Part shown: positions 4,718 to 41,972 of the stretch, in pieces | Layout of the letters: every line of letters starts with the position of its first letter | Position numbering within the stretch: position 1 is the stretch's first letter | Assembly (NCBI RefSeq): GCF_002117935.1 | Contig: NZ_BDJE01000017.1 | Coordinates: 62,001-126,000 of the forward strand | Origin: Nocardioides sp. PD653-B2 | GTDB lineage: Bacteria; Actinomycetota; Actinomycetes; Propionibacteriales; Nocardioidaceae | DNA: 64,000 nt | Reading direction: 5' to 3' | Made by a program: the position numbers and the translations under genes | Notes under the pieces: model-generated | The model's input: only the letters and a program-made list of their open reading frames with translations | The model's database searches: none | Told to the model about the DNA's origin: nothing

Positions 4718-4726
4718 CCGTCGCCA

Positions 4727-8479: not shown

Positions 8480-8553
8480 TCTCGCGACTGGTGAGTCGCC
8501 ACCCACACGGCCCTCGATACGGCTAGCCTGCAGATCACACAGGTGGGGGCCTA

Positions 8554-17154: not shown

Positions 17155-17178
17155 CTGGTGGGCGATACTGGGTTTGAA
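17155..17178. repeat. Left attachment site (24-bp copy of tRNA-Val 3' end)
   Basis: Identical over 24 bp to 42482-42505, starting CTGGTGGGCGATACTGGG. Only this 3' fragment of the tRNA is present here, so the functional tRNA gene is kept at the other end. A partial 12-bp copy, GGCGATACTGGG, also occurs at 17335-17346, just before the integrase start. Confidence 0.88.
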
Positions 17179-22463: not shown

Positions 22464-22503
22464 GCCTATCGGCTCGGGATGCTGGCAGACGTTGGGAGCG
22501 CAA

Positions 22504-25595: not shown

Positions 25596-26546
25596 ATGAG
25601 CGTGGCTGACTACTTCGGACTCGACGACCCCGAGTCCGCACTGATGACCGAAGCGCGGGCCGGGTGGGTCCGGTGGTGCGGCGAGGACCCCGACCTCGCG
25701 GTCGTCGACGACCTGACCGACCTCCGGGCCTGGACCTGGCGGGCGGAGCGCGAGGCGAAGGGTCGCGTTTTCGGTCGCCTGGCCGAGGTTGCGCAGACCG
25801 AGGATGCGGCGCGGGCTGCGCTGGTCTGGCTGCTGCTACCGGGCGCGATCAACCTGGCCGACGGGTTGCGCGACTTGACCGCGGACATCGACGGTCTCGT
25901 CGCCGGCCAGCTCTGGATCGAGGTTTCCCGCAGCCACCTGCACTCGCCGTACGGGCTGGCGAAGGCGGTCCTCAACAGCACTCGGCGTGCGGTGCTGGCC
26001 GAGCTGGGAGTCGGCAGCCACGGGAGGCAGCGCGACCGGGCGTGGAGCCAGAGGGTCCTGCTGGACCGGTTCGAGGAGCAGGCGGTGCAGGCCGAGCCCG
26101 AGGGCGTCGACCCGTACGACGAGCTGGTCGAGGTACTCGACGCGGCGCTGCGCGACAACGCAGTCGGGGGCATCGACATCTGGCTCCTGCACGAGCTGGC
26201 GGTCGCCGCCCACGCCGCGGGCGCGCCGATGCGCCGCGGGCGGTGCGGACTGACGTCGCCCGCTTTGGTCGACGAGATCGCTCGTCGGCGTCCAGAGGCG
26301 GCCCGCACGCTGCGGCGCTGGCTTGGCAGCGCGGTGGACCAGCTCGCGGCGTACGTCGACTCCTGGCAGGACGACGCCCGGCTCGCGCAGTGGCGCATCG
26401 ACCACCCGCACCGGCTGCCCACCGAGAGGGAGCAGATCGAGACCGAGCGGGTCTACGACGAGTACCTCACAAGCCGAGGCGAGGGCCCTGACTGGGAGCC
26501 GATCGGGACGGACGGGGTTCCGCTGGTGCTGCGCGCCTCGGCTTGA
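25596..26546 (+). CDS. Hypothetical element protein (316 aa)
   Basis: Begins MSVADYFGLDDPESALMTEA with GGAG upstream of the ATG. Middle part (ARAALVWLLLPGAINLADGL, LKAVLNST-like helices) faintly recalls region-2/4 helices of sigma-like proteins often found next to actinobacterial relaxases, but this is weak. Its last 80 bp overlap the end of the relaxase gene on the other strand. No function assigned. Confidence 0.6.
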   Translation: MSVADYFGLDDPESALMTEARAGWVRWCGEDPDLAVVDDLTDLRAWTWRAEREAKGRVFGRLAEVAQTEDAARAALVWLLLPGAINLADGLRDLTADIDGLVAGQLWIEVSRSHLHSPYGLAKAVLNSTRRAVLAELGVGSHGRQRDRAWSQRVLLDRFEEQAVQAEPEGVDPYDELVEVLDAALRDNAVGGIDIWLLHELAVAAHAAGAPMRRGRCGLTSPALVDEIARRRPEAARTLRRWLGSAVDQLAAYVDSWQDDARLAQWRIDHPHRLPTEREQIETERVYDEYLTSRGEGPDWEPIGTDGVPLVLRASA

Positions 26547-29500
26547 GCTGGTTGCGGATCCGGTAGGCCAGTGCGGCGGTCGGGTGGTCGTCGGGCAGCG
26601 GCTTGCGAGCGGCGGCACGGGAAAGCAGCCGCTCGGCGTCGTGCCCGGTCCGCTGCAGGCGGTCGAGCTCGCGCGCCAGCTGCAGGGTCTGGTCGTCGCT
26701 GCGGCCGACGTACCCGACGATCTTCGCCTCCCAGGCGCGGACGATGTCGGTGTAGCGCTGGTTGATCTGGTTAGTGAGGTTGCGGTGGTACGCCGCAGGC
26801 GCATCGGCGTCCGGTGGCGGGCCGGCGAGTCGGCGGTCGTCGTCAGGGACGCCCTGGGCCGCCCTCCACAGAGCGACCTCGTCGTAGAGCGCGCCGTCGA
26901 GGACGTCGGCGTACCTCTGGGCCCACGTCGGCAGGGTGTCCCGCGGCTGCGCGCGGACGCCGTCGGCCAGGGTGCTCACCCGCTGGGCACGGGCCTCGAG
27001 GTACGGGCCCCAGGTCTCGTGCCACGCGACGTCGGCCGGGATTCCGGGGAGCCAGGGGAGTGGACCGGCGTCGGCGGCGTCCAGCGCGTCTTCCCAGCCC
27101 GAGCCGAGCACCCGCTGGGCGCCGAGGGCCACGGCGTCGGCGTACCGGACGACGGCGTCGTGCAGCTGCGCCTCGACCCGCGCGGCAGTGGCGGCGGTGG
27201 AGGTGGCGGAGACGGCGGCGCCGTCGCGGGCGAGGATGCCTTCGAGCATCTCGGTGGCGGTGAGCTGGTCGCCGTGGCCGGGCAGGGCGAGCTGGTGCGG
27301 GTCGGTGGGGGCGGCGAGCACGACGTGGGCGTGGTTCTCGCGGCGGCCGCGGGTGAGCATCGTGTAGAGCAGCTGCCGGGACTCCTCGCCGGTGACGATG
27401 CCGTGCATCGCGTCCGCGGTGAGGCCCTGGGCGGTGTGCACGGTGCTGGCGTAGCCGAGGTCGACGTGCGCGGCGACGTACTCCGCGGGCAGCATCGTCG
27501 TCAGGCCCGAGGTGGTATGCCGCACGGACAGGCTGCCGTCACGGATGCCGGTGACGGTCCAGCGGTCGCCGTTCTTGACCCAGTCGGTGCCGCTGACGCC
27601 GAGGCGGCGGTCGTTGTGGCGGGTGATGATCGTGTCGCCGACCGACGCCTGGTTGCCGTCGCGCAGCGGCACCTCTGTGCGCGGCTTCATCCCGGTCAGG
27701 CGTACGGCGCGGGCGCGGGCGTTGAGCTCGGCGACGAGGTCGCGGGTGGGGGCAAGCATGAGGCAGTCACGACCGCCGGCAGTCTCACGGATCCAGGAGT
27801 CGAAGACGGCCTCGACGCAGGTCTCGGTGTCGCCGACGTGGACGCGGTCGTGGTCGAGGTAGTACCCGAAGGCGGCGGGGTCGCCCTCACGCAAGTCGAG
27901 GGAGGCGGCTGCCTCGGCGGGGTCGGCGAACCGGACGACCTCGTCGAGCCGGTCAGCGCCGTGGTGGTGGGCGATGTCGCGGAGCACGCCGCCGGCGCCG
28001 ATCGCGGCGAGCTGCTGGTCGTCGCCGATCAGCCGGACGGTGGCGCCGCGGTCCAGGCAGTAGCCGACGACCCGGTCGAGGGTGAGGGTGTCGGCCATCC
28101 CGGCCTCGTCGATGACGATCAGGGTCTGCGGCCCGATGCCGGCGGCCCAGCCCTCGAACCGACCCGTGGTGATCTGGTGGTCGAGCTTGGCCAGGGTCTC
28201 GCTGAAGATCTCTGCCGCGTCGGAGAGAACCGCGGCCGCGGCAGCCGAGGGCGTGAGCCCGATCGCGTCGTACCCGCGGTCGATCCACACCTGCGCGAGC
28301 ACCTTCATCGCGGTGGTCTTGCCCGACCCGGCGGGTGCGAGCGCGAGCCGGACGCGGCGGTCGCTGCTGGCCATCGCCAGCACCAGGTCGCGCTGGCCGT
28401 GGTTGAGCCGGTCGCCCTCGACCGCGGCCGCGCGGATGGTGATCTCGACCTCCTCGGGATCGAACGAGAACGCACCGTTCATTCCGGCCGCCGCGACCAG
28501 GCGCTCCTCGGCTTCGAGGATGCGGGCGCTGGTGAAGTGGTCGCGGCCGGTGTGGCGGTAGACGCTGGTGCCGTCCGAGCGCCGCAGCGCATCGGGCTCG
28601 GCGATCGGATCGCGGTCGGGGGTCAGGTTGACGAAGCGTGCCTCGGCGGCGTCGACGACCCACTGCACGACTTCGCTGACCCGCTCGGGAGGTACGGCGA
28701 CGTCGCGCACCTGGCGCTGCGCCTCGGCGTACACGTGCCAGGACTGCCACGTTGCCTGATGCGACTCGAGCTCGCTCAGCACGCGCTGCGCCGTCGTGTT
28801 CACCCAGTCCGCCGACACCTCCTGCGGCTCGGGACCGCTCGGGTGCAGCCCGGCGCGAATCATTGCGCCGAGCCTCGCCGGGCCAAGGAGGTCCGTGGCC
28901 TGCCGAAGCCACGCGTCGCGCTGCTCGGACTCCGACCGCGGCTCGTGCTTGGCCCGGCGAGTCTCCAGGTTCGCCTGTTGCGCCAGCGCGACGGCCTCGA
29001 CCGGCGTCGGTGGCCGCCCCTGCGCGCGGGTGAAGTCGCGGGCCAGCTCGCGCTGGCGCTTGGTGATGTCGGCTCGACGTGTCGACCAGAGCCGACACAG
29101 GCTCGGGTCGACCCCGACGATCTCGCGCACCGGCCGCTTGCCGCCCGGCAGCACCGGTCGAGCCTCGAAGCGGACGCCGAGGAGCGCGTGCAGGTGGTGC
29201 TCCAGCGCGGTGTTGTAGGTCTCCGAGGCGGCTACGACGTGCTGGTGCAGCACCCGGCCATAGATCGAGAGCCACTTGCCCTCGCGGGTCTGCACCTTGT
29301 TGGCGACGGCGACGTGGGTGTGCAGGTCGGGGTCGCCTGCGCGGGAGTCGCGGTGGGTGAAGGCGGTCGCGATCAGCCCGCGGGTCTCGACCTGCCGAGC
29401 GCCGTTCGCGCCCTCGCGGGTGAAGATCACCTCGCGCTCGAGGTAGGCGAGCGCGTCGGCGACCCCAGCGCCGTGAGCCTGCTCGATCAGCTTGGCGACC

Positions 29501-30087
29501 TCGGGCGGGGCGACCGCCCAGAGCGTCGAGACCGACTTCACCGGGCTGAACGTCAGGTCGTACCCTGCGACCGCGGTCTGCCGTGGCCGTGAGTAGCGAG
29601 CCAGCGCAGCCGACAGCTCCCGCTCCGAGGCAGGTTCCCGATCGTGCTCCCGGACGAACCACTCCCGCGCGACCTCCGACTTCATCCGGGCGATCACCTC
29701 GCTGGGCGGACGACCTCCGTCGGAGGTTGCGCGCTCCGCGGTGGTTAAGCCTGTCGAAACCTCGTCGACCCGCCGCTGCACCTCGGCGTTGAACCCGTCG
29801 ACGCCCTCGGTCCCGTAGACCTTGTACGGCCATCCGAGCGACTCGCCCGTCAACGGATGTGACGCGGAGCCGAACAGGTGCTTCATCTGTTCGGTGGTGA
29901 CCACGTCTCCGGCCTCGAGCCCGTCGACCCCGACCAGCCCGGAGCCGACCCAGCGGCCGGGCACCTCGCCCTTTGCCGCGTAGTAGTCGGCCAGGGGAGT
30001 GGCGCCCTTCTCCGTCGAGTCGAGCGCAGCGACTTGGTCCGTGAGGTACTCGTAGCCCGATCCAGTCGACAGTTTGTGCAGGGTCAT
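26467..30087 (-). CDS. MobF-family conjugative relaxase/helicase (TraA-like)
   Basis: 1206 aa. The N-terminal HUH relaxase domain has the catalytic Tyr region (STGSGYEYLTDQ) and the metal-binding triad H245, H256, H258 in THRDSRAGDPDLHTHV. A RecD-like helicase follows, with Walker A APAGSGKTT (about residue 600) and Walker B VIDEAGMADT, then helicase motifs to YTMLTRGRRENHAHVVL. The enzyme nicks oriT, stays bound to the 5' end and unwinds the strand for transfer. The frame allows a TTG at 30099, but ATG 30087 gives the usual MTLHKLS start. A REP-like repeat is embedded in frame at ~110-116. The C-terminus is Pro/Arg-rich. Confidence 0.93.
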   Translation of the reverse strand: MTLHKLSTGSGYEYLTDQVAALDSTEKGATPLADYYAAKGEVPGRWVGSGLVGVDGLEAGDVVTTEQMKHLFGSASHPLTGESLGWPYKVYGTEGVDGFNAEVQRRVDEVSTGLTTAERATSDGGRPPSEVIARMKSEVAREWFVREHDREPASERELSAALARYSRPRQTAVAGYDLTFSPVKSVSTLWAVAPPEVAKLIEQAHGAGVADALAYLEREVIFTREGANGARQVETRGLIATAFTHRDSRAGDPDLHTHVAVANKVQTREGKWLSIYGRVLHQHVVAASETYNTALEHHLHALLGVRFEARPVLPGGKRPVREIVGVDPSLCRLWSTRRADITKRQRELARDFTRAQGRPPTPVEAVALAQQANLETRRAKHEPRSESEQRDAWLRQATDLLGPARLGAMIRAGLHPSGPEPQEVSADWVNTTAQRVLSELESHQATWQSWHVYAEAQRQVRDVAVPPERVSEVVQWVVDAAEARFVNLTPDRDPIAEPDALRRSDGTSVYRHTGRDHFTSARILEAEERLVAAAGMNGAFSFDPEEVEITIRAAAVEGDRLNHGQRDLVLAMASSDRRVRLALAPAGSGKTTAMKVLAQVWIDRGYDAIGLTPSAAAAAVLSDAAEIFSETLAKLDHQITTGRFEGWAAGIGPQTLIVIDEAGMADTLTLDRVVGYCLDRGATVRLIGDDQQLAAIGAGGVLRDIAHHHGADRLDEVVRFADPAEAAASLDLREGDPAAFGYYLDHDRVHVGDTETCVEAVFDSWIRETAGGRDCLMLAPTRDLVAELNARARAVRLTGMKPRTEVPLRDGNQASVGDTIITRHNDRRLGVSGTDWVKNGDRWTVTGIRDGSLSVRHTTSGLTTMLPAEYVAAHVDLGYASTVHTAQGLTADAMHGIVTGEESRQLLYTMLTRGRRENHAHVVLAAPTDPHQLALPGHGDQLTATEMLEGILARDGAAVSATSTAATAARVEAQLHDAVVRYADAVALGAQRVLGSGWEDALDAADAGPLPWLPGIPADVAWHETWGPYLEARAQRVSTLADGVRAQPRDTLPTWAQRYADVLDGALYDEVALWRAAQGVPDDDRRLAGPPPDADAPAAYHRNLTNQINQRYTDIVRAWEAKIVGYVGRSDDQTLQLARELDRLQRTGHDAERLLSRAAARKPLPDDHPTAALAYRIRNQLKPRRAAPAEPRPSRSAPSQGPRLGL
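29740..29760 (-). repeat. REP-like element inside the relaxase gene
   Basis: GGTGGTTAAGCCTGTCGAAA (plus strand) matches the dispersed Nocardioides-type intergenic repeat with a GTTTCGACAGGCTNAACCACC core. Here it is translated as VSTGLTT in the relaxase, between the N-terminal Tyr region and the His triad. Confidence 0.55.
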
Positions 30088-30232
30088 CACGATCCCCAAG
30101 GCCGCGGGCGCGCCGCGAGTGGCCAGGACGGGCGGACCAATGAAAGAGGTGTGTGGGCCGAGAAGGGCGGGAATCGAGAGGCGGAGGAACGTCAGGAATC
30201 GGAGGCAGGGTAAGAAGAGCCACGAGGGCCGC

Positions 30233-30295: not shown

Positions 30296-32188
30296 TCACC
30301 AGGCGGACTCGGGGAGGGTCCAGATCGATGCGGGTCGGTCAGGATCCATGGTGATCTCGAGATGCTCCAGGAGGCGGATGCGAAGGCTTCCGCGAAGGCG
30401 CGCTTCGTCGATTCTCGACCGCTCCTCCCGGCCGACGATGTCGTTCATCTCTTCCGGTGGAAGCTCGCTGACCCCGACGATGACAGCGAGCTCTTCGTCC
30501 GCCTCGTCGCCGTCGACGCGCGTGGCTGGCGGGAGGAGTCGCACCGTTGGGACACCGGCGGGCGACAGTAGTGCGACGTACGGCGAACGGTCGTCATACA
30601 CGCGCAGGACTGGGCCAGCCGTAAAGGGTTCGGACGACGTGTCGTTGATGCCCATCGGTCGGCCGGTCAGGATCGAATGAGCCTGGTAGCTGTTGGTCAC
30701 CACGACCGGGTCGGAGACTGAGCCACCGGCAATGGCCGCCTCCAAGTCAGCAGCCAAGGAGTCAAACGTCGTTTCGGAGGAACCCGCTAGGTCGGCTACA
30801 ACCAGGTCGAGGATCCGGTCCTCCTCGCCGCGGACGATCCCGCGAACAAGATCGTCGGCGAGGCGTTCCGGCTCAGCTACCACCCGAGTCTCGGCGAAGT
30901 ACCAGCGTGGTATGAGGGTGTCGAGGCCGAAGTTCGTCTGGACTGGTTCGGCAGCTGAATCGGGCGCGGTCAGAAGCGCTTTGGTGAGCGACTCCTTCCG
31001 CGCCGCGGCAAGCTTCTCGTGTACCGCGGTTCTGAATGCCGCGACGCGATCCGGATCGACGGGGAGACGCGCGTAACTCTCCTCTAGGAGCGCGTCGCCT
31101 TGATCCACGACGTCGCTGAGATGCTCCTTCAGGCGATCGAAGTGGTTCTCAGGGACGCCGAGGGTGGCGCGCGCGCCGGCGAAGCCCCCCTTTTCCCACG
31201 AGTCAATGACGGTCATGAGGCGCCGCGCAGCATCGACCTCTTCGTCGCTGGATGGATCGATCGGTTGCCATGTCAGGCGAGGGCCAGCAACGAGCATCAG
31301 TGCCAAAGCCATGTAGGTCCCGATCTGAATCACGCCGCCGCTCATCGGTCCGCGTTCATTCAACTCCCACCAATGGATGCCGAGCTCGTTCTCCAATTCG
31401 TCGGACGCACGGAGCATCAGGACGAACGCTTCGTCGTGTTCGAACGCGTTCGCGATCTGAGAGCAAACGGTCTTGAACGACTCATCTTGGTTGCCGTGAT
31501 CGAAGCGATAGAGGACCCATGCATAAAGAGCGAGGAGTCCTGCCCCCGTGACGGGGCCGAGGCTCGAGCCGGGTGAGGTACTGCCGTGCAGGAAGTACTT
31601 GATTGCGACTCGCGCGGCCTCGGGGTCACCCGATTCGATGGCACTCTTTACTACTCGCAAGAATGTCCGGGTGTAGATGACGTCGGCCCCGCGAACGACT
31701 TCCTGGTCGAGGCGGCCAAGGTGGAGGTAGAAGCTCCCGAACTCGGACAGTCGGAGCAGGAGGGCATCTTGACGCGCTGTGGTGTCTGGGCTTGGCGCGG
31801 CCAGCTCCTGGCTCCACGCTGACTCGAACAACGTGAGGATCATGCCAAGCGCATTGAGCACTCCTCGCTCAGCGCAGGCGACTGCCACCCGCCGCACCCA
31901 CGAGAGAACGTCGACCCAGAGAAGGCGAGACGTACTTGCGCTGACGCTGTCGACAACTCCATGCAAGTCGCGGACGATCTGTTCCCACTCGCGGCCCAGT
32001 GGGAGGTTTGGGCCGGCACCGGTCGCTGTGGCTGTCTGAAGACCGAGTTGTTCATCGAGGATGGTTTCGATCAGGTTTTGGTAGACGTCGAGTCCATCTT
32101 GAACGACGCCCATCTCGCGGCGCTCGATCGCCATGACGACGTTGTCTCTGAGGGCTGCCAGAGAGGACTCGAAGGCAGAGCGCGTCAT
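30296..32188 (-). CDS. Unknown protein (630 aa) at the end of the restriction operon
   Basis: Large soluble, mostly helical protein beginning MTRSAFESSLAALRDNVVMA. No known motif recognised. A C-terminal part (VLRVYDDRSPYVALLSPAGV) looks beta-rich. Its ATG overlaps the upstream membrane-protein stop by 4 bp (ATGA), and that gene in turn overlaps hsdR, so it is translated as the last member of the type I restriction operon. It could be an effector or a regulator of the restriction system. Confidence 0.75.
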   Translation of the reverse strand: MTRSAFESSLAALRDNVVMAIERREMGVVQDGLDVYQNLIETILDEQLGLQTATATGAGPNLPLGREWEQIVRDLHGVVDSVSASTSRLLWVDVLSWVRRVAVACAERGVLNALGMILTLFESAWSQELAAPSPDTTARQDALLLRLSEFGSFYLHLGRLDQEVVRGADVIYTRTFLRVVKSAIESGDPEAARVAIKYFLHGSTSPGSSLGPVTGAGLLALYAWVLYRFDHGNQDESFKTVCSQIANAFEHDEAFVLMLRASDELENELGIHWWELNERGPMSGGVIQIGTYMALALMLVAGPRLTWQPIDPSSDEEVDAARRLMTVIDSWEKGGFAGARATLGVPENHFDRLKEHLSDVVDQGDALLEESYARLPVDPDRVAAFRTAVHEKLAAARKESLTKALLTAPDSAAEPVQTNFGLDTLIPRWYFAETRVVAEPERLADDLVRGIVRGEEDRILDLVVADLAGSSETTFDSLAADLEAAIAGGSVSDPVVVTNSYQAHSILTGRPMGINDTSSEPFTAGPVLRVYDDRSPYVALLSPAGVPTVRLLPPATRVDGDEADEELAVIVGVSELPPEEMNDIVGREERSRIDEARLRGSLRIRLLEHLEITMDPDRPASIWTLPESAW

Positions 32189-33198
32189 GGCTGCCCCTCC
32201 CAGCGAAGCGCCTTGGTGAGACGGCTCCGCAACTTGGCGAGGTCGCCCGAATACGACTCGGCATTCTTCAGGACGAATATCTCGTGTCCCGCATCGATGG
32301 AGGACCCGATCGAGGCCATGATGCGTAGTTCTGGCGGGGTCCCTGTCGAAGGTTCTCCAGGCGCGTTGGTGGCTGCGGCGGCGGTGAAGGCGCTGGCATC
32401 TTCGTCGGCGATGTCCTTGACGATGTCGGTCAGGAGGTCAATGTCGACGTCCACCAGTGTGCCCGCTCGATCCGCTGCGACGAGGACAGTTCCGTCAACG
32501 GTCGCGGTGCTGCTCCAGCGCCACTCACGGGGAGCAACAGCGTGGAGTCGGGCCTCTGCCGCCGCGCGCGTGTGGGCTTCGCGCATGCTCTTCTTGAGGT
32601 CGTCGACGAGTGCCTTCTCGCCAAGGCGAAGGGCCTCACCTGGATTGGCGTAGACCTTGCCGACGCGTGCATAGGACCAACCGATCCAGAGGATTGTCAG
32701 AGCGACGACCGCCACCTCGACAACGGCAGACTCCGGTTGATCAAGGAAGAGCGATGCAGCTCCGACCTGGATGGCGCCGACAATCGAGAAGGCCAGGACA
32801 GGTCGAAACTGGCTCTCCTGAAACAAGACTTGGCGCACCCCGCGCGACGTGACGACAGGCTCCGACGTCAGCTGCATGAGGACCGCGAGGCCGGCGAAGG
32901 CGATGGAAGCGAATCCAGCCAAGACCTGCCAGGCCGTGCTGATGACTGCCGAGGGGTCTTCAACTTTGAAGGCATTAGCGTGCGGGAACAAGGTTACGGC
33001 ACCAGTCGTCCAGGCGAGCGCAAACGCAGCCGCTTGCACGAGGCTGCTCCATGCGAACGGTCGTCGATCCCAAGAGTCGCGCCCAACGTCGATGGCCGTC
33101 CTGATGCGTCCAGTCTTCGGCGAGTGCCGCGCTATCTCCCATCGAACTTGCTCAAGTAGCCACCGCGAATTCGATCCGTGATTGCTTCGCCGCCTCAC
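32185..33198 (-). CDS. Membrane protein coupled to hsdR (337 aa)
   Basis: Two hydrophobic hairpins: around residues 50-115 (SLVQAAAFALAWTTGAVTLF, VLAGFASIAFAGLAVLMQL) and 130-180 (VLAFSIVGAIQVGAASLFL, VVALTILWIGWSY). A ~150-residue cytoplasmic C-terminal domain follows. GTG start overlaps the hsdR stop (GTGA), and its stop overlaps the next gene's ATG. Family not recognised. The tight coupling to a restriction subunit suggests a membrane-associated defence component. Confidence 0.75.
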   Translation of the reverse strand: MRRRSNHGSNSRWLLEQVRWEIARHSPKTGRIRTAIDVGRDSWDRRPFAWSSLVQAAAFALAWTTGAVTLFPHANAFKVEDPSAVISTAWQVLAGFASIAFAGLAVLMQLTSEPVVTSRGVRQVLFQESQFRPVLAFSIVGAIQVGAASLFLDQPESAVVEVAVVALTILWIGWSYARVGKVYANPGEALRLGEKALVDDLKKSMREAHTRAAAEARLHAVAPREWRWSSTATVDGTVLVAADRAGTLVDVDIDLLTDIVKDIADEDASAFTAAAATNAPGEPSTGTPPELRIMASIGSSIDAGHEIFVLKNAESYSGDLAKLRSRLTKALRWEGQP

Positions 33199-36100
33199 GC
33201 GACTTCCTCGGGAACGGCGGTGCGTTTGATTCGCTGGAGCGTGTCGACGATGACCTCGACATCAGCATCGGGGAAGAAGTAGTCGGGGCCGGTGGGCGCG
33301 TGGTCTGTGTAGGGGGATTCGAAGAGGCGGGCCGGCTCCATGACCCCGTTCTTGGTGAGCTCGTCGATGATGAGGTTCACGAAGCGCACCTGGTCGGCGG
33401 AGAACTTGGTGCTGTCGAGGTAGTTCTCGAAGGCCTCGAGTGCCGCGGACCGATCGAGGCCGACGAGGCTGCGGACGAAGATGCCGAGGCCGCCGCCCTG
33501 CTCGGTGGCCCAAGCGATGTCGACGTGCTGGCCGCCGGAGGCGACGAGCATCTGCTCCAGCTCGGTGAGGTCGTCCGCCGTGAGCTGCTTGTTGCGGCGA
33601 AGGCGCTGAAGGGCGAGGTTGTCGAGGTGTTCGCGCAGGTAGGCCTCTGCCTTGGCGCGGAAGCGCTCGAAGTTCGTGCCGGGCGTGACTCTGGGTAGGA
33701 CGACTTCGATGCCCTCGCCGAGGATGTCCTCAAAGTCGGTGTAGACGGGGTTGCGCGACGTCTTCTCGATGAAGCGGGCAAGGCCGCGCAGCTTGCGGCG
33801 CGCTTCCTCGAGCATGGACAGGGTGACGTCGATCCACCATTCGTCGCCGGCGACCGACTCCAGCAGCACCGCCTGCTCGGCGACACTTGGGATAGTTGTC
33901 TTGCCGAGCAGCGCGGAGGCGATGCGCTGCACGGTCTCACGCAGTCGTTCGGCGAGGACAGCGTCGCCGTCGAGCTGGGCGAGCTGGCGACGCAGGATGA
34001 GCAGGTCGAAGCGCTTGGCGTCCTCATCCTCGTCATGAACCGACGACGGAAGTCCGGCGAGCGCGAGCAGTGGCTCGGTATCCTCCGCCGCGATCGACCC
34101 CCAGGCGCCGGTGTCGGCGTACTTCTCGACTGCCTTGCGGTGCGGGCGGACAACGAAGTTGTCGAGGTTCATCCCGGCAACGACTTCGTGCAACGTCGAG
34201 GCGGTCGAGGTCCGCAGGTCGGGCTCGGTGTCACCCAGCCCGATCACCAACCCGAGGCGCGCCTCGAAGAGACGCTGAGACAGCGACTTCTGGATCTGAC
34301 CCTGCGAGCCGGGGAGATCCTGGCTGAAGTACTCGAGATTGCCGCAGAAGTCGAAGACGAGGAAGTCCTCCTTGTCCTCGTCGGGGCCGAACAGATCTGG
34401 GCACAGGCGAGTGCCGCGGCCGATCATCTGCCAGAACTTCGACTTCGAGCGGACCATCTTGAAGAAGACGAGGTTGACGACTTCGGGGACGTCGATGCCG
34501 GTGTCGAGCATGTCGACGCTGATCGCGATGTGCGGCGCCTTGTCCTTGATCGAGAAGTCGTCGATCAGTGACTGCGCGTACGGCGTGCCATGGGTGATCA
34601 CGCGGGCGAAGTGGCCGGCTAGCTCGGGATAGGCGAGATTGAAGCGTTTCTCGATGAACTCGGCGTGCTTCTGGCTCTTGGCGAAGACGATCGTCTTGCC
34701 CAGTCGGTCGGCGCCGGCCACCTTGTAGCCCTGGATCATCAGCGATTCGAGGACCTTGTCGACCGTGTCCTCGTTGAAGAGGAACCGGTTGAGGTCCTCG
34801 GCGTCGACCTCTTCGGGCGGACCGTCCTCGCCCCAGTCGAGGGCGTCCCACTGGTCCTTCTCTTCCTCGGTGAGGTCGTCGTACTTGATGCCCGACCGCA
34901 GGAACTGGGTGCCGACGCTGATGCCCTTCGGTGGCACGAGGTAGCTGGACTCGACGGCCTCGTCGAGGGAGTAGTTGTCAGTGGGCACGCCGTCTTCGAG
35001 ATGGAACAGTCGGTAGGTGTTGTGGTCGACCTCGTCCTTCGGCGTCGCCGTCAGGCCGACGAGCAGCGCGTCGAAGTAGTCGAAGATCGCGCCGTACTTG
35101 GCGTAGACGGAGCGGTGGGCCTCGTCGATGACGATGAGATCGAAGTAGCCCGGCCCGAATCGACGGAGGCCGCCGTCGACCTCATTGATGAGGTTCATCA
35201 TCGTCGGGTACGTCGAGACGTAGACGCGACCCTCGATGGCCTTCTCGGTCACGAGGTTCACGGTCGTCGAGCCGGGCAGGTGCTCCTTGAATGCGTTCGC
35301 CGCCTGGCGCACCAAGGCTGTGCGGTCAGCGAGGAACAGCACACGCTTGACCCAGTTCGCCTTCTGGAGCAGGTCGACCAGAGCGATGGTGGTGCGGGTC
35401 TTGCCTGACCCGGTGGCCATAACAAGGAGGGCCTCGCGCTGCTTGCGGTCGAACGCATCGCCCACGGCCTTGATTGCTCGCACTTGGTAGGGCCGGCCGG
35501 CGATGTCGGTGTTCACCTGCGCAGACGACAACGCGAGCTTGGTCTGGCGGCGCTGGATCAGCAGCTCCAGCTCGTCGCGGGTGTAGAACCCCTGGGTCTG
35601 CCGCGGCGGATAGCCGCCGGCGTCGTCCCAGATCCGGTGTTCGTAGCCGTTGGTGTAGAAGATCACTGGTCGTCGGCCGAACTGCTTCTCCAGGCAGTCG
35701 GCGTAGAGCTTGGCTTGCTGCTGGCCGACCTCGGGTGACTTGGAGGTGCGCTTGGCCTCGACCACCGCCAGTGGCAGAGCATCGGCGCCCCACAGGACGT
35801 AGTCGACGAATCCCTTGCCCTCGGCGTTGGGCATGCCGTTGACGGGGTACTCGCGGTCGCGCTCTTCATCCAGCGTCCACCCGGCCTCGTGCAGCAGGAC
35901 GTCGATGAACAGATCGCGGGCGGCGGCTTCGTCGTAGTCGCGCGTGTCGGGCGCGGCAGCTGCCTGGGCGGCTGCGATCTGAGTCTTCAGCTCGGCGATC
36001 TCCGCCTCGTGGGCGGCCAGTCGCTCGTCCTTCTCGGCGAGCTCGCGGGCGTGGGCCTCGTCCTGCTCCTTGAACTTCGCAGCGAGGCGGGCAACCTCCT

Positions 36101-36554
36101 CGCGCGACAGCGGCGCGGCTTTGGCTGCGTGGGCCGGGTCGAACTGGGCCTGTAGCGGCACCACCTTCGGCGCAGGGGAGTGATGGTACGACGTCCACAC
36201 GACGACGTTGAACAGCTCGCGCAGCACCGCGAGCGACACATCGGGACGGATCTGCCGGTTCTCGTGGACGGCCGTATTGGCGATGCGACGGATCGCGGTC
36301 AGCTTCTGCGTGATGCCCTGCGGCACCTTGGCCTTGAACGCAGCGTCGTTGATCTTCGCCGCGAGGTCGTCGCGGTAGGGGATGGGCAGCGAGAGGACGT
36401 CGTAGAGATAGCCGACGAGCTCCTCGACCACCCGGCGGCTGTAGAAGCACGCGGAGCGAGGGTCCGACGCGAGGTACGACTCAGCCCGGGCGCAGTCGTC
36501 GTGCAGTGACGGCAGCGTCTGGCGGACGAAGTCGAAGTTACCCACGGAGTGCAT
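33195..36554 (-). CDS. hsdR: Type I restriction endonuclease subunit R (EcoEI-like)
   Basis: 1119 aa. An N-terminal DUF4145-like domain (~1-120, CARAESYLASDPRSACFYSR) is followed by a coiled coil (~165-205), then the nuclease domain with VDYVLWGADALPLAVVEAKR (D-x(n)-E-x-K). The SF2 translocase has Walker A VMATGSGKTRT, DEAH in VIDEAHRSVY, VGLTATP and IGRGTRLCPDL. A C-terminal EcoEI_R_C-type region follows. It cleaves DNA at collision sites after ATP-driven translocation when the HsdS target is unmethylated. 36 bp after hsdM2, overlapping the next gene by 4 bp. Complete. Confidence 0.93.
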   Translation of the reverse strand: MHSVGNFDFVRQTLPSLHDDCARAESYLASDPRSACFYSRRVVEELVGYLYDVLSLPIPYRDDLAAKINDAAFKAKVPQGITQKLTAIRRIANTAVHENRQIRPDVSLAVLRELFNVVVWTSYHHSPAPKVVPLQAQFDPAHAAKAAPLSREEVARLAAKFKEQDEAHARELAEKDERLAAHEAEIAELKTQIAAAQAAAAPDTRDYDEAAARDLFIDVLLHEAGWTLDEERDREYPVNGMPNAEGKGFVDYVLWGADALPLAVVEAKRTSKSPEVGQQQAKLYADCLEKQFGRRPVIFYTNGYEHRIWDDAGGYPPRQTQGFYTRDELELLIQRRQTKLALSSAQVNTDIAGRPYQVRAIKAVGDAFDRKQREALLVMATGSGKTRTTIALVDLLQKANWVKRVLFLADRTALVRQAANAFKEHLPGSTTVNLVTEKAIEGRVYVSTYPTMMNLINEVDGGLRRFGPGYFDLIVIDEAHRSVYAKYGAIFDYFDALLVGLTATPKDEVDHNTYRLFHLEDGVPTDNYSLDEAVESSYLVPPKGISVGTQFLRSGIKYDDLTEEEKDQWDALDWGEDGPPEEVDAEDLNRFLFNEDTVDKVLESLMIQGYKVAGADRLGKTIVFAKSQKHAEFIEKRFNLAYPELAGHFARVITHGTPYAQSLIDDFSIKDKAPHIAISVDMLDTGIDVPEVVNLVFFKMVRSKSKFWQMIGRGTRLCPDLFGPDEDKEDFLVFDFCGNLEYFSQDLPGSQGQIQKSLSQRLFEARLGLVIGLGDTEPDLRTSTASTLHEVVAGMNLDNFVVRPHRKAVEKYADTGAWGSIAAEDTEPLLALAGLPSSVHDEDEDAKRFDLLILRRQLAQLDGDAVLAERLRETVQRIASALLGKTTIPSVAEQAVLLESVAGDEWWIDVTLSMLEEARRKLRGLARFIEKTSRNPVYTDFEDILGEGIEVVLPRVTPGTNFERFRAKAEAYLREHLDNLALQRLRRNKQLTADDLTELEQMLVASGGQHVDIAWATEQGGGLGIFVRSLVGLDRSAALEAFENYLDSTKFSADQVRFVNLIIDELTKNGVMEPARLFESPYTDHAPTGPDYFFPDADVEVIVDTLQRIKRTAVPEEVA

Positions 36555-36590: not shown

Positions 36591-38036
36591 TCACCCGAGC
36601 AGGTCCTCCAGTTCAGTGACGCCCCTTTCGATCTCGGCATTGAGGGCCTTGATGTCTGCAAGGATTTCTCTGGGTGGGCGCGTGGACCCGGTGTCCTCGG
36701 GGGTCTCTTGATACCGGCTCGGCGTGAGCAGATAGTCGTTGGCGGCGATCTCGTCGCGCGGCACAAAGAAGCTCTGGTCGGAGCGCTTCCGCGACAACTC
36801 AGGGCTGGCCGGATCCTCCCGGGTCTTCCAGCGAGCGAGGACGTCATGGAGGTCATTCGCAGCCACGGGCGTGCGCTTCTTGTCGAGAGACCGACCGTCG
36901 GCGCGAAGGTCGTAGAACCACACGCGGTCGGTACCGCCGACCCCTGTCTTGGTGAAGACCAGGATCGCGGTCTGGGTCGCCGAGAATGGTTCGTAGGCGG
37001 CGGGCGGCACCTTGATGACGGCATCGAGTTTGTGGTCGTCGACGAGGGCCTTACGCAGGGCCAGTTGGGCCTTGTGAGTTCCGAACAGCACCCCTTCGGG
37101 AACGATCACTGTGGCTCGGCCACCGAGTTGCAGAAGGCTGAGCACTCGGCCGACGAACAAAGGCGCCTTTGTCGTCGATTTCACGTCCCTGTGCAGGTCC
37201 TTGTCGAGGGCCGACTTCTCGACCGACCCATTGAACGGGGGGTTGGTCAGCACAAGCGAGTACCGACCAACATCATCATCCGGCATGGCCGCCAGCGAGT
37301 CGCGGCGGCGAACGTCGGGGGTGTCGATGCCGTGGAGAAGCAGGTTCATGGTGGACATGCGCGCGAAGGCCGGGTCGTTGTCGAACCCGTGCAACAAGCC
37401 GTGCTGGAAGTGCTTGCGAGTTGTGTCGTCCAGGAGAAGCTCCGGGTTCGTCTCGCGGAGGTAGTTGGCGGCGTACACGAGGAAACCACCTGACCCACTC
37501 GCGGGGTCGGCGATCAGATCGCCGGGTTGCGGATCGACCAGCCTGACCATCAGGTCGACCAGGTGCCGTGGCGTGGGGAAGCCCCCGCTGCTGTTCTTGG
37601 TGGTGATCTTCGAGATCAGGTACTCGTAGACGGCTCCATTGGCCGCCGGAGACGAGTACGGCACCTTGTCGATGAGATCGACCATCCGGCTGAGTGCACT
37701 TGGCGAAGGAATCGTGAACACGACGTCGGTGAAGGTCCCGCCGCGCTCGCGGAGGAAGTGAATGACCGTGGTCTCGAACAGCCCGAACATCCTGCTCGCC
37801 TCAAGGTTCTTCAGCCTCGACCAGCGGAGTTCCTCGGTCTCCGCGTCGAAGATTGGGTTCTCGATCGGCCTACCGATGACGTTGGCCTTCTTCTCGGCGG
37901 CGGTGTGGATGACGTCGAGTCGTCGAACTGCCAGGAGCAAGGTCGCTTGGGCGACGATGTCGTAACCGTCCTCAGTCCCGACCTCCTCGAAGGCATCCCA
38001 AAGTTCGTCGATCACCTGCTTGAAGTCAGTGGCCAT
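36591..38036 (-). CDS. Second type I DNA methyltransferase subunit M (divergent)
   Basis: 481 aa beginning MATDFKQVIDELWDAFEEVG. SAM-binding motif DPASGSGGFLVYAAN and catalytic motif LVLTNPPFNGS identify an N6-adenine methyltransferase. The HsdM N-terminal helical domain and the C-terminal REILADIKALNAEIERGVTELEDLL helix, which packs on HsdS, are present. It differs clearly from the other M subunit at 40476-41972, so it is not a recent copy. No second HsdS accompanies it. It lies between an hsdR fragment and the complete hsdR. Confidence 0.88.
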   Translation of the reverse strand: MATDFKQVIDELWDAFEEVGTEDGYDIVAQATLLLAVRRLDVIHTAAEKKANVIGRPIENPIFDAETEELRWSRLKNLEASRMFGLFETTVIHFLRERGGTFTDVVFTIPSPSALSRMVDLIDKVPYSSPAANGAVYEYLISKITTKNSSGGFPTPRHLVDLMVRLVDPQPGDLIADPASGSGGFLVYAANYLRETNPELLLDDTTRKHFQHGLLHGFDNDPAFARMSTMNLLLHGIDTPDVRRRDSLAAMPDDDVGRYSLVLTNPPFNGSVEKSALDKDLHRDVKSTTKAPLFVGRVLSLLQLGGRATVIVPEGVLFGTHKAQLALRKALVDDHKLDAVIKVPPAAYEPFSATQTAILVFTKTGVGGTDRVWFYDLRADGRSLDKKRTPVAANDLHDVLARWKTREDPASPELSRKRSDQSFFVPRDEIAANDYLLTPSRYQETPEDTGSTRPPREILADIKALNAEIERGVTELEDLLG

Positions 38037-38118
38037 CCATGACTCCTGCTGTCTGCGCCGACTTGAAGGAATCCAGGGTGTGTAAGTCCACTCGCCGTAC
38101 CGGGCCTCGGCAAGGGCG

Positions 38119-38208
38119 TGAGCGAGGATGAGGCGAGAGGTACGACTCGGCCCGGGCGTTGTCGCCGTGTAGAAACGGCAGCGCCTGGCGGACAGAGGAC
38201 TTCCCCAT
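38119..38208 (-). pseudogene. Truncated duplicate of the hsdR 5' end
   Basis: ATG 38208 opens 9 nt after the nuclease stop and reads SVRQALPFLHGDNARAESYL, matching the hsdR start at 36554 (FVRQTLPSLHDDCARAESYL) over about 30 codons. DNA-level similarity (e.g. GCCTGGCGGAC, GAGGTACGACTC) stops after HPRS. It marks where the ancestral hsdR began before hsdM2 and a complete hsdR came to lie downstream. Confidence 0.7.
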
Positions 38209-38217
38209 GTCTGACGA

Positions 38218-39309
38218 CTACTCGCCGTCGTCGTCGATGTCGAAGCGGTTCGCAAGCCGCTCCAGGGTGAATTCCTGACGGAGCTTGCACGAGGTGTTGG
38301 GGTTGTAGAACAAGCCCGGCTCACTGTAGGCCTCGGCCAGGGGGACGGCAGCCAGCCATCTGACGGGGAGTACCCATTCGGAGATGTCGTCTGTCTCCGT
38401 CTGGCCGGGCTCGATGTGCTGGTAGTTGCCCCGGAGTTTCTCCTGGGCCAGGGGTGTCCACTCGCCCTCATGCAGGACGAGTGCGGCATCGAATCGCTTG
38501 GCATCCGCGAGAGTCACCCCAACTCCCACATAGCCACTCCCCGGCACGTAGACATTGACCCGGTGGCCGACGGGGATCGTGCGCAACGTCCCTGACGAGC
38601 GCGCTGATCCTCCAGCGGACACGAATCCGAGCTCCAATCCGTCTTGCCAGTCGCGGCCGTGGGTGGCGAAGTTGACGTACCAGTCAAGTCCGTTCCAGGC
38701 GGCGCGCTTGCTCTTCTTGCCTCCCGTGGTCGCGGTCGGTGTCTCGTCGTCCGACGCCGTAAGCCAGGAGCGGGCGAGGTAGCGACGCCCGTCGTCCTCG
38801 AGATAGGAGAAGAAGACCGCGTTGACCGGGACACCGAAGTCGCGAAGGTAGTTGACGATCCGCTCCGAGCTGGCGTCGAGCTCGGCAGCCACGATGGTGA
38901 GGCTGAGGTCACCGTTGAGCTCGTCGGGCGGCGCGCTTCCGAAGACGTCCTCGAACGCGGCCTCGAATGGCTGGTCGAGGTGCTTGGTTGCGATGTCGAT
39001 GATGTCGTCGCGCGACAGTGTCGAGGCCCAGGAGCCGTAGTCGAGCACCTGGGCGACGACCTCTCGTGGAGTCTTGTCGCGCTTGAGCTCCAACAGGTGC
39101 AGGTTTCCGTCGGCGTCGATCGCCAGCAGGTCGAGACGTGGACCGTACGGCGTGATCACCTCGCTGCCGATGACCAGCAAGCGCTCGCCGAGCAGTGACG
39201 GGTCGCGTTTCAGGAACTCGTGCAGGTCCTTCTCTGCGGGGAGTACGGACGCCGTCAGCGGCTTCGGCTCATCGCCGTCGATGCGCCACATCCTCATTTC
39301 AACCGGCAT
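38218..39309 (-). CDS. PD-(D/E)XK nuclease-like protein of the restriction operon
   Basis: 363 aa. The N-terminal half carries a NucS/DUF91-like nuclease core: RLDLLAIDADGNLHLLELKR gives D60 and E74-x-K76. The C-terminal half contains a region around AWNGLDWYVNFATHGRDW of unknown role, with a Cys-free end. Starts 3 bp after the hsdS stop, inside the type I operon. It may be a supplementary restriction nuclease or a protein limiting self-damage. Confidence 0.8.
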   Translation of the reverse strand: MPVEMRMWRIDGDEPKPLTASVLPAEKDLHEFLKRDPSLLGERLLVIGSEVITPYGPRLDLLAIDADGNLHLLELKRDKTPREVVAQVLDYGSWASTLSRDDIIDIATKHLDQPFEAAFEDVFGSAPPDELNGDLSLTIVAAELDASSERIVNYLRDFGVPVNAVFFSYLEDDGRRYLARSWLTASDDETPTATTGGKKSKRAAWNGLDWYVNFATHGRDWQDGLELGFVSAGGSARSSGTLRTIPVGHRVNVYVPGSGYVGVGVTLADAKRFDAALVLHEGEWTPLAQEKLRGNYQHIEPGQTETDDISEWVLPVRWLAAVPLAEAYSEPGLFYNPNTSCKLRQEFTLERLANRFDIDDDGE

Positions 39310-39312
39310 CGG

Positions 39313-40479
39313 TCACAGCTCCCCTCGGAATGCGCGGGACTGGAGGGAGGCGAACAGGTGTGCATCCTCGGATGCCGCGTATTCAACCCGTGCCCGCTGG
39401 TCCTGTATGAGTTCGATTCGCGTGGCGAACTTGCGCTGCAGCGACAGTGGTGGAACCTCCAGGGGAAGCTTCGCCAGCCGCGCTTTCGAGATGTTCGGCA
39501 TGCTCGACGCCGAGCCACTCGAAAGGTCACGAACGGCCGGGCGCTTCTGCGGGTTCATCATCAATGCCTGGAAATAGCGCCTGTCGAGTCGATCCGCGTC
39601 GAGGTGCAGTCGGAAGATGAGATCAGGCAGGAGGAGGCGGGGACGCACCGCGTCGACAAGTGCAACTGCTCCGACCAACTCGCGCGTGTTCTTGCGAGTC
39701 ATCAGGACATCACCACTGTGAACCTCGGTTGAGGCCATGCCGCCCACGTGGCCGGAGTACGCCTTGTTCTCTCCGGCCTGAAAGCGCCCATAGGTGACGG
39801 CACCGAGCTTCAGCACCCCCCACTCGTCGGGTTCCGCAGGCCGCGCATGGCAGTTCGGGCTCGTGCCGTTGTCGACCTTCGGCACGAGTTCTCCGAACGG
39901 GACCATTTCCCAGCGGCCTTCGCGCAAGCTGCCGAACATGTCGTGGAAGACCGACTGGGTGAGGGCATCTAGGTGCGTGAGAACTTGGCGGCGCTTGGTG
40001 CGGAGGGCGTCGGCGTGGTCGAGAATCGCGGCGATGCGGCGCTGCTCGGAGACTGGGGGCAGATGTAGGTCGTATCGGAGGAGTTGCTCGCGGTTGAGCT
40101 TCGGAATGTTTGCGCGGTTCGACAAGGACGTCGCGTAGTCGAGGAAGTCTTGGCTGCGGAGTACGTAAGCGACGTACTCGGGGGTGGCGAGATTGCGGTC
40201 GACATCGAGCGCGTACATGTCCGCACTACAAACCCCCGCGAGGTCGACGAGGGCTACCTTGTTCAGGTTGGGACGAATCTTCGAGTACAAGACGTCGCCT
40301 GCCTCGAATCGATACTTGCCGCTGGTTACGCCGTCCTCGCGAGCGGTCCGATATCCAAGTAGACGTCCGGAGCCCTTCTCGATGGAGTCGGGCGCGATAT
40401 GGGGCAGGTGGGCGAACTCCGGACGAGTTGGATCAACAAGCGATGACCGAACAGTGCAGACATCGCCGAGCGTGGTCAC
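39313..40479 (-). CDS. hsdS: Type I restriction specificity subunit S
   Basis: 388 aa with two target-recognition domains and two conserved spacer helices. TRD1 covers ~1-150 and ends with LPPVSEQRRIAAILDHADAL. TRD2 covers ~190-345 (WEMVPFGELVPKVDNGTSPN) and ends with VPPLSLQRKFATRIELIQDQ. Each TRD reads half of a bipartite DNA target. The target cannot be deduced by eye. ATG overlaps the hsdM1 stop by 4 bp. Confidence 0.92.
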   Translation of the reverse strand: MTTLGDVCTVRSSLVDPTRPEFAHLPHIAPDSIEKGSGRLLGYRTAREDGVTSGKYRFEAGDVLYSKIRPNLNKVALVDLAGVCSADMYALDVDRNLATPEYVAYVLRSQDFLDYATSLSNRANIPKLNREQLLRYDLHLPPVSEQRRIAAILDHADALRTKRRQVLTHLDALTQSVFHDMFGSLREGRWEMVPFGELVPKVDNGTSPNCHARPAEPDEWGVLKLGAVTYGRFQAGENKAYSGHVGGMASTEVHSGDVLMTRKNTRELVGAVALVDAVRPRLLLPDLIFRLHLDADRLDRRYFQALMMNPQKRPAVRDLSSGSASSMPNISKARLAKLPLEVPPLSLQRKFATRIELIQDQRARVEYAASEDAHLFASLQSRAFRGEL

Positions 40480-41972
40480 GAGAGCATCGCCTTCAGCTCG
40501 GCGAGGCCTTTGGCGATCTCCTCTTCCAGAGCCTCGATGTCGGCAACGATCTCCAGCGGGGCTCGGTGCTCGATCTCGTCGTGAACGATCTCTTTGTAGC
40601 GGTTCAGCGAGAGGTCGTAGCCCTGGATGACGATGTCGCTCTTGGACACGAGGAAGGACTGCTCGGTGCGGGCTCGGTTTTTCTCCCCGTCGCGGTGCTG
40701 CCAGCGAGTGAGCACATCGGGGAGGTCGTTGGCCTCGACCGGGTTGCGCTTGTCGTCGAGCGAGAAGCCGTCGGCGCGGACATCGTAGAACCAGACGTCG
40801 TCGGTCCCGCCCGAGTTCGTCTTGGTGAAGAACAGGATCGCGGTCGAGACGCCGGCGTACGGACGGAAGACACCGGACGGCAGCTTCACGACGGCGTCAA
40901 GCTTCTGGTCCTCCACCAGAGTCTTGCGAAGCGCCTTGTGCGCCGTACTCGAACCGAACAGCACGCCATCAGGGACGATCACCGCTGCGCGGCCGCCGGG
41001 CTTAAGGATCTTCAGGAACAGCGCGAGGAAGAGCAACTCGGTCTTCTTCGTCTTCACGATCCGCTGGAGGTCCTTGGCGGTGGCCTCGTAGTCCAGCGAT
41101 CCCGCGAACGGCGGGTTGGCGAGGATGAGGGTGTACTTGTCCGCGTCGCCGGCGGCTCCCTCGGAGAGGGAGTCGCGATAGCGGATGTCAGGGGACTCGA
41201 TGCCGTGCAGCAGCATGTTCATGCTGCCGATGCGCAGCATGGTGGAGTCGAAGTCGTAGCCGTGGAACATCGACTGGTGGAAGTGCTTGCGCTGCAATGA
41301 GTCGAGCAGAGCTTCGGCGTGGGTCTCACGGACGTACTCGCTCGCGGCGACGAGGAAGCCGCCCGTGCCGCACGCCGGGTCGCAGATCTCGTCGGACGGC
41401 TGTGGCGCGGTCATCTTGACCATGAGCTCGATGATGTGGCGCGGCGTGCGGAACTGACCGTTGACGCCGGCGGACGCGATCTTGGAGAGCAGGTACTCGT
41501 ACAGGTCGCCATTGGTGTCGCGGTCCGCCATCGGGATGTCATCGAGCATGTCGACGACCTTCGACAGCAGCGCCGGGGTCGGGATGGTGAAGCGGGCGTC
41601 CTTCATGTGCTCGCTGTAGGTGGTGCCGTCACCCAGGGCGCGAAGCAACGGGAACACCTCTTCAGCGATGGTCTTGTGCATCACCTCGGGCGACGTGTTC
41701 TTGAACTGGCCCCACCGAAGGTGTGCCTGACCAGGCAGGAACACTGGGCTCTCGACCTCGGTCTTCGTGACGCGGGCCTTCGTCTCGGCCAGCGTTTGGA
41801 TGTCATCGAGGCGGCGGATGAACAGCAGGTAGGTGATCTGCTCGATGACCTCCAGGGGGTTGCTGATGCCGCCAGACCAGAAGGCGTCCCAGACGCGGTC
41901 GATCTTGCTCTTCAGCTCACCCGTGATCACTGGCGCAACTCTAGTGAGCGCACGGCGTTCAGACCGGGACAT
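40476..41972 (-). CDS. hsdM: Type I DNA methyltransferase subunit M (first)
   Basis: 498 aa. N-terminal HsdM helical domain (IDRVWDAFWSGGISNPLEVI), SAM motif DPACGTGGFLVAASEYV, catalytic LILANPPFAGS, and the C-terminal HsdS-binding helix (EIVADIEALEEEIAKGLAEL). The open frame starts upstream, but ATG 41972 follows AGGAGG at 6-nt spacing. First gene of the restriction operon, divergent from xis, with 164 bp between starts. Confidence 0.93.
   Translation of the reverse strand: MSRSERRALTRVAPVITGELKSKIDRVWDAFWSGGISNPLEVIEQITYLLFIRRLDDIQTLAETKARVTKTEVESPVFLPGQAHLRWGQFKNTSPEVMHKTIAEEVFPLLRALGDGTTYSEHMKDARFTIPTPALLSKVVDMLDDIPMADRDTNGDLYEYLLSKIASAGVNGQFRTPRHIIELMVKMTAPQPSDEICDPACGTGGFLVAASEYVRETHAEALLDSLQRKHFHQSMFHGYDFDSTMLRIGSMNMLLHGIESPDIRYRDSLSEGAAGDADKYTLILANPPFAGSLDYEATAKDLQRIVKTKKTELLFLALFLKILKPGGRAAVIVPDGVLFGSSTAHKALRKTLVEDQKLDAVVKLPSGVFRPYAGVSTAILFFTKTNSGGTDDVWFYDVRADGFSLDDKRNPVEANDLPDVLTRWQHRDGEKNRARTEQSFLVSKSDIVIQGYDLSLNRYKEIVHDEIEHRAPLEIVADIEALEEEIAKGLAELKAMLS

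What the first reader, a model, noticed from the sequence alone, without database searches (positions are those of the whole stretch)
36591..41972. Type I restriction operon with two different HsdM genes and a truncated hsdR relic between them
On the minus strand the order is hsdM1-hsdS-nuclease-(30-codon hsdR 5' fragment)-hsdM2-complete hsdR. The fragment (SVRQALPFLHGDNARAESYL) matches the start of the intact hsdR and sits exactly where the ancestral hsdR would begin. This implies that an hsdM2-hsdR module, or hsdM2 alone with duplication of the hsdR start, was inserted into an ancestral M-S-nuclease-R operon. The two M subunits are strongly diverged, so M2 is imported, and there is only one S subunit.
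Basis: seen in the sequence. Interest (0 to 1): 0.65.

Follow-up and report, generated by a model that had tools for sequence, protein, structure and literature searches.

The report
Type I restriction operon, two methyltransferases
An actinobacterium carries a DNA restriction operon with two different methyltransferase genes and one targeting gene, apparently made when an extra methyltransferase gene slipped in at the start of the cutter gene and left a short duplicated scar; the same arrangement is kept in a second species, so the extra gene is probably a working part.

Summary
On the minus strand the order is hsdM1-hsdS-nuclease-(hsdR 5' relic)-hsdM2-hsdR, and the relic matches the intact hsdR start far above chance.

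In 17 of 21 operons of this kind with the nuclease, hsdR follows it directly. One other genome, Nocardioides sp. T2.26MG-1, has the same two-M operon; its relic is a 38-bp exact repeat of its own hsdR start. M2 alone is the extra piece: each genome's R is closest to R of a different one-M operon.

M2 is under purifying selection (dN/dS 0.15), keeps motif I, NPPF and a full HsdM fold, but changes 37 of 131 family-conserved sites. The genome's only detected hsdS is in this operon. Best explanation: a second M subunit sharing S (M1M2S), as in PacII, but with NPPF instead of the m4C-type NPPY. That step is inferred.

"M2 is imported" is not shown. An independent case, a fic gene in Mycobacterium talmoniae, has the same kind of hsdR-start scar.

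The parts
40476..41972 (-). hsdM1, 498 aa, canonical type I M subunit (DPACGTGG, NPPF, HsdM_N)
   Evidence: Pfam N6_Mtase 8e-67 and HsdM_N 3.5e-17; PADLOC MTase_I; 87-93% identical in the close one-M operons
39313..40479 (-). hsdS, 388 aa; the only Methylase_S place found in this genome
   Evidence: Pfam Methylase_S; genome search; first TRD region 91-100% DNA-identical to L147, second 68-79% to L156
38218..39309 (-). Nuclease of PADLOC candidate family PDC-S11 (NucS_C-like); its C-terminal half is a swapped, hypervariable module
   Evidence: PDC-S11 2.3e-133; NucS_C 2e-4, below its cut-off; sliding identity; dN/dS 0.043 for aligned codons 1-185 against 0.436 for 196-330
38116..38208 (-). hsdR 5' relic, still starting with an ATG (38208) where hsdR starts in one-M operons; the ORF runs to 38026 and overlaps the M2 start
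36591..38036 (-). hsdM2, 481 aa, diverged second M subunit (DPASGSGG, NPPF; changed pocket loop and motif-VIII region)
   Evidence: Pfam N6_Mtase 4.8e-56; 86% orthologue in Nocardioides sp. T2.26MG-1; dN/dS 0.147; model pLDDT 85.6
33195..36554 (-). hsdR, 1119 aa (DUF4145, HSDR_N, ResIII, EcoEI_R_C); start moved three codons upstream, ATG-CAC-TCC-GTG-GGT
   Evidence: 86-95% identical to R of the close one-M operons

Best explanation
This is a type I restriction-modification operon into which a second, diverged hsdM gene (M2) was inserted exactly at the hsdR start, in the variable gene slot between hsdS and hsdR. The old start and first codons of hsdR stayed behind as a relic, and hsdR restarts downstream of M2 with three extra codons or from GTG. 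M2 is not a dead passenger: it is conserved as a full HsdM protein in a second Nocardioides operon. Most likely it is the second M subunit of an M1-M2-S methyltransferase: M1 docks on one half of S, M2 on the other through its C-terminal helix, each methylates one half-site, and R joins to cut DNA that lacks the marks. Both M proteins have NPPF, so both marks are predicted to be m6A, although the changed M2 pocket could alter its rate, its strand preference or its need for hemimethylated DNA. Shown: the anatomy, the scar, conservation and selection, and one detectable S in the genome. Inferred: M1M2S assembly and the activity of M2.
For: Same gene order in Nocardioides sp. T2.26MG-1: M1 91%, S 38%, nuclease 75%, M2 86%, R 90%. 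One-M operons with hsdR directly after the nuclease. M2 dN/dS 0.147 with dS 0.519, like M1 dS 0.527, so M2 is about as old in these operons as M1. Motif I and NPPF kept. Predicted full HsdM fold with C-terminal helix 455-480; best PDB matches are HsdM chains, among them a PacII chain (7vru_A, Z 32.6 over 456 residues, taken to be M1). One Methylase_S place in the window's genome and no third strong hsdM; a third, partial N6_Mtase match has E 1.1e-7. PacII is a solved precedent: M C-terminal tails bind the S coiled coil and M1 recruits M2 (PMC9613975, section 7).
Against: M2 differs at 37 of 131 columns that are at least 95% conserved in 97 other HsdM rows (39 for the second M2), including the pocket loop (NGQF to SGGF) and the PYAGVS stretch; the next most deviant row differs at 8. 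That could mean lost catalysis. S in the two-M operons shows no shared feature that sets it apart from one-M operons. M2 is rare: 2 of 215 genus genomes. The pocket segments 149-152 and 350-353 have pLDDT under 50. No complex was modelled.
Confidence: 0.5

Rival explanations
1. M2 forms its own (M2)2S methyltransferase with the shared S, in competition with (M1)2S, for instance with a different preference for hemimethylated or unmethylated sites.
For: M2 keeps both catalytic motifs and the C-terminal helix; one S is available to both M genes.
Against: Nothing in the sequence separates this from M1M2S. In PacII, M2 alone cannot bind S (PMC9613975).
Confidence: 0.2
2. M2 is a catalytically weak or dead M paralogue that docks on S and regulates the enzyme, for example by limiting restriction or altering the hemimethylation check.
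For: Many family-conserved positions around the pocket changed, and the two M2 proteins have the same new residue at 35 of these 37.
Against: Motif I and NPPF are intact, and low dN/dS runs through the catalytic region (0.120 for aligned codons 101-290).
Confidence: 0.2
3. M2 is what is left of a second type I operon that was fused in; its own S was deleted and it has no role with the present S.
For: Relic-M2-R order fits a tandem arrangement followed by deletion; M2 is about as far from M1 as from other actinobacterial HsdM.
Against: M2 stays intact and under purifying selection in two genomes, and the window's genome shows no other S that it could serve.
Confidence: 0.1

Closest known systems
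Non-canonical m6A/m4C type I systems (PacII M1M2S; PDB 7vru, 7vs4; PMC9613975)
   Same: Two different M genes with one S; M1 has NPPF; M2 is a complete HsdM with a C-terminal helix like the S-docking tail.
   Different: PacII-type M2 has NPPY and AAEF and makes m4C; here M2 has NPPF and SGGF. By sequence M2 is nearer to 5ybb (2e-41) than to the two PacII chains (7vru_A 2e-24, 7vru_B 7e-15). Here M2 lies beyond S and the nuclease, behind an hsdR scar.
Ordinary one-M operon M1-S-PDC-S11 nuclease-R of Nocardioides and relatives (e.g. L147, L148, L150, L156, L163)
   Same: M1 87-93% and R 86-95% identical in the close set; nuclease N-terminal half alike at DNA level.
   Different: No M2 and no relic; hsdR starts a few bases after the nuclease.
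Mycobacterium talmoniae operon M-S-hsdR relic-fic-R (L038)
   Same: A gene inserted at the hsdR start, leaving a duplicated hsdR 5' end.
   Different: The cargo is a Fic protein (PF02661), there is no nuclease gene, and the relic has small gaps against the intact R start.
Mycoplasma agalactiae hsd loci (PMC9465063)
   Same: Two hsdM genes in one hsd locus.
   Different: HsdM sequences there are described as highly conserved, with three hsdS genes (passages read); here the two M proteins are about 48% identical with one hsdS.

Membership tests
Type I restriction-modification system | hsdM with N6_Mtase domain, AdoMet motif I and NPP(Y/F) | tested here: met
   M1 and M2
Type I restriction-modification system | hsdS with target recognition domains | tested here: met
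   Methylase_S with two stretches; TRD-like swapped blocks
Type I restriction-modification system | hsdR with nuclease and SF2 helicase domains | tested here: met
   HSDR_N, ResIII, EcoEI_R_C
Type I restriction-modification system | Methylation and ATP-dependent restriction activity | not testable with these tools
   needs methylome and restriction assays
Non-canonical m6A/m4C type I (PacII-like M1M2S) | Two different M genes and one S | tested here: met
   single S place in the genome
Non-canonical m6A/m4C type I (PacII-like M1M2S) | M1 with NPPF | tested here: met
   NPPF in M1
Non-canonical m6A/m4C type I (PacII-like M1M2S) | M2 with NPPY and AAEF | tested here: not met
   M2 has NPPF and SGGF in both genomes; definition from PMC9613975 passages
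Non-canonical m6A/m4C type I (PacII-like M1M2S) | M1M2S heterotrimer and m4C on one strand | not testable with these tools
   no complex modelling or methylome

The most novel reading that the evidence does not exclude
A separately evolved class of heterodimeric type I methyltransferase (M1M2S) in which both subunits carry NPPF but M2 has a rebuilt base pocket, giving asymmetric methylation or a new target base. The M2 gene would act as a cassette that moves among type I operons by insertion at the hsdR start, with exact hsdR-start repeats that could also let it loop out again.
Probability: 0.2. Interest if true: 0.72.

Novelty: new variant of a known kind. Interest (0 to 1): 0.5.

Why it matters
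Type I systems with two different M subunits are described mainly as the m6A/m4C class. A system outside that class with two NPPF subunits and one S would be a second route to an asymmetric methyltransferase and could be tested directly by methylome sequencing of two Nocardioides strains. The hsdR-start scar, found again with a fic gene, shows where and how cargo genes can enter the slot between hsdS and hsdR.

Tried and rejected
Translational coupling. The relic ORF overlaps the M2 start in both genomes (stop ends at +11 in the window, +4 in L037), which suggested a leader cistron for M2. Shuffling the part downstream of the hsdR-like stretch gave the same outcome in 41% and 74% of 20000 trials, so chance explains it.

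Scar as a general mark of cargo; 78 operons with M before R, out of the window and 118 loci (the rest lacked a usable R start or order); 60 with a slot of at least 60 bases were compared with their own hsdR start, with 60 mononucleotide shuffles each. Clear hits: WIN, L037, L154 (same genome as L037) and L038. Marginal: L166 (30 against shuffle maximum 28), L042 (24 against 23); L159 scored 32 but its shuffles reached 40. One search dropped L154 and added L177-L192: 92 operons, 55 with more than 150 bp of extra sequence by a rough measure; 14 new slots compared, none clear (L189 32 against 27). A protein-level search gave the same three (E 1.6e-8, 1.1e-7, 4.8e-5), then L179 at 0.028. So the scar is recurrent but rare: 3 of 55.

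Relic against other hsdR starts. The window relic scores higher against the R start of L155 (92) and L143 (88) than against its own (84); the L037 relic scores 83 against the window's R and 78 against its own. The relics therefore do not say which R was duplicated.

M2 donor. Nothing listed over 51% identity except the window itself and T2.26MG-1 in 394 class, 215 genus and 391 order genomes (overlapping sets, long lists cut); plasmids best-ranked 46.9%, phages 44.2%, viral contigs none, genome-contig scan 138 relatives, best 80 kept, next after L037 at most 48%.

Import against duplication. Undecided. Quick and careful trees put M2 on stems of 2.1 and 3.2 changes per site. In the careful tree M2 lies outside the Nocardioides M1 rows (95/91 support), but grouping it with nine close M1 rows, a group named after seeing the first tree, is not rejected (p-AU 0.226).

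Literature. Seven searches of an open-access library; several lists were cut (10 of 41, 12 of 195, 12 of 314). I saw no two-M type I system with NPPF in both M; most subscription papers are not held. Read: PMC9613975 (outline, passages, section 7), PMC9465063, PMC3874165 and PMC10569733 (passages). The original m4C type I paper (recalled as Morgan et al. 2016) is not held. R-linked genes in Campylobacter hsd loci are recalled only and not used.

Full report
Observation. The minus strand carries hsdM1 (40476-41972), hsdS (39313-40479), a PDC-S11 nuclease (38218-39309), an hsdR-like fragment, hsdM2 (36591-38036) and hsdR (33195-36554). The fragment region matches the hsdR start with a local score of 84; 300 shuffles reached at most 37. 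The aligned part, 38193-38116, has 64 identical columns of 78. The fragment still begins with an ATG (38208), placed as the hsdR start is in one-M operons.

The ancestral operon. In 118 loci with M1-like genes, many from Nocardioides and relatives show M1-S-nuclease-R without M2; in the close set (L137, L141, L147, L148, L150, L156, L158, L162, L163) M1 is 87-93% and R 86-95% identical to the window's. Of 21 operons with the nuclease and a usable R start, 17 have the R match 4 to 16 bases after the nuclease match; the other four are the window, L037, L146 (a RusA-like gene) and L155 (broken nuclease).

The second two-M operon. The scan of one genome per species found one M2 relative above 48%: L037, Nocardioides sp. 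T2.26MG-1 (NZ_CATNLZ010000012.1). It has the same order: M1 91%, S 38%, nuclease 75%, M2 86%, R 90%. Its relic is a 38-bp exact copy of its own hsdR start, and the relic's short ORF ends on the M2 start. In the genus search 2 of 215 genomes have M2: the window's and G575, whose contig length equals that of the T2.26MG-1 contig. The window's genome is therefore placed in Nocardioides by inference.

How it formed. In both genomes hsdR after M2 starts as ATG-NNN-NNN-GTG-GGT-AAC behind a shared GATTCGGCAGG, whereas one-M operons of the close set start at ATG-GGN-AAC or a close variant. In the DNA tree the window's R groups with L147+L163 (100/100) and L037's R with L148 (100/99), not with each other. 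The M1 DNA tree is largely unresolved; in the protein tree window M1 is next to L150 (94/89) and L037 M1 next to L148 (100/90). M2 therefore did not travel with a fixed R. Sliding identities show a recombining operon: the window's first TRD region is 91-100% identical to L147, its nuclease C-terminal half 81-88% to L150, and R from about base 1200 on 89-98% to L147; L037's nuclease C-terminal half is 91-98% identical to L148. The first 150 bases of R do not decide whether the M2 unit brought a piece of R. dS between the two operons is 0.527 for M1, 0.519 for M2 and 0.625 for R, so M2 has been in these operons about as long as their M1 genes have been apart. I infer one insertion followed by recombination with one-M operons; two insertions are not excluded, and the relics do not tell which R was duplicated.

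A second case of the scar. Comparing each hsdR start with its own S-to-R slot (60 slots; 14 more) gave one further clear hit: L038, Mycobacterium talmoniae. There an hsdR-start relic follows hsdS directly, then a Fic gene (8401-9693; PF02661 8.5e-19), then intact hsdR from a GTG. The slot is a general cargo site: 55 of 92 operons hold more than 150 bp of extra sequence there by a rough measure. Of ten cargo proteins from eight operons scanned, nine matched Pfam: Mrr, HTH plus nucleotidyltransferase, HepT-like, RNase_T, Fic (two), DUF4357, Schlafen-like and RusA.

What M2 is. M2 is 48-49% identical to M1 and at most 51% identical to any other listed protein except its 86% partner. It keeps DPASGSGGF and NPPF but differs at 37 of 131 columns conserved in 97 other HsdM; the next most deviant row differs at 8. 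At 35 of the 37 the two M2 proteins have the same residue. M2 dN/dS is 0.147, M1 0.108, so M2 is kept for a function. AlphaFold gives a whole HsdM (pLDDT 85.6, pTM 0.81) with a C-terminal helix 455-480; the two segments under pLDDT 50 are the pocket loop 149-152 and 350-353. The best structural matches are HsdM chains: 2okc Z 37.8, 5ybb 35.1, PacII chain A 32.6 over 456 residues.

How it probably works. The window's genome (99.96% complete) has one detectable Methylase_S place, in this operon, and two strong N6_Mtase genes, both here; a third match is partial (E 1.1e-7). If M2 has a partner, it is this S. The precedent is PacII: M C-terminal tails form a four-helix bundle with S, M1 binds first and recruits M2 (PMC9613975). 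PacII-type M2 has NPPY and AAEF; ours has NPPF and SGGF, so it fails that membership test, though it may work alike. I put about one half on M1M2S, with rivals (M2)2S, a regulatory M2, and a remnant without function.

Verdict. A real, comparatively supported variant of a known kind. The scar and the conserved second M are established from sequence; the enzyme model is inferred and directly testable.

Noticed in passing
17156-42505: A 23-bp direct repeat of the tRNA-Val(gac) 3' end at 17156 and 42483 bounds a stretch of about 25 kb that ends with the hsd operon: probably an integrated element.
   Followed up: partly
26467-30099 (-): TrwC-type relaxase-helicase (1210 aa) inside that element, suggesting that it can be mobilised.
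   Followed up: partly
22408-24299 (+): Overlapping TIR gene (PADLOC ThsB) and SLOG cluster3 gene, a Thoeris-like pair.
   Followed up: no
38218-38750 (-): The C-terminal half of the PDC-S11 nuclease is exchanged between operons like a TRD (dN/dS 0.44 against 0.04 for the N-terminal half): possibly a swappable recognition domain.
   Followed up: partly
L038:8163-9693: Mycobacterium talmoniae operon with an hsdR-start relic in front of a fic gene and intact hsdR.
   Followed up: yes
L037:14839-17103: KAP-family NTPase, PADLOC PifA-like, directly behind hsdR in T2.26MG-1; the operon there lies next to an ORF (4708-6114) with a sub-threshold phage-integrase match.
   Followed up: no
30296-33198 (-): Two genes directly behind hsdR (337 and 630 aa; the first overlaps hsdR by 4 bases) without any Pfam, NCBIfam or PADLOC match at the thresholds used.
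   Followed up: no
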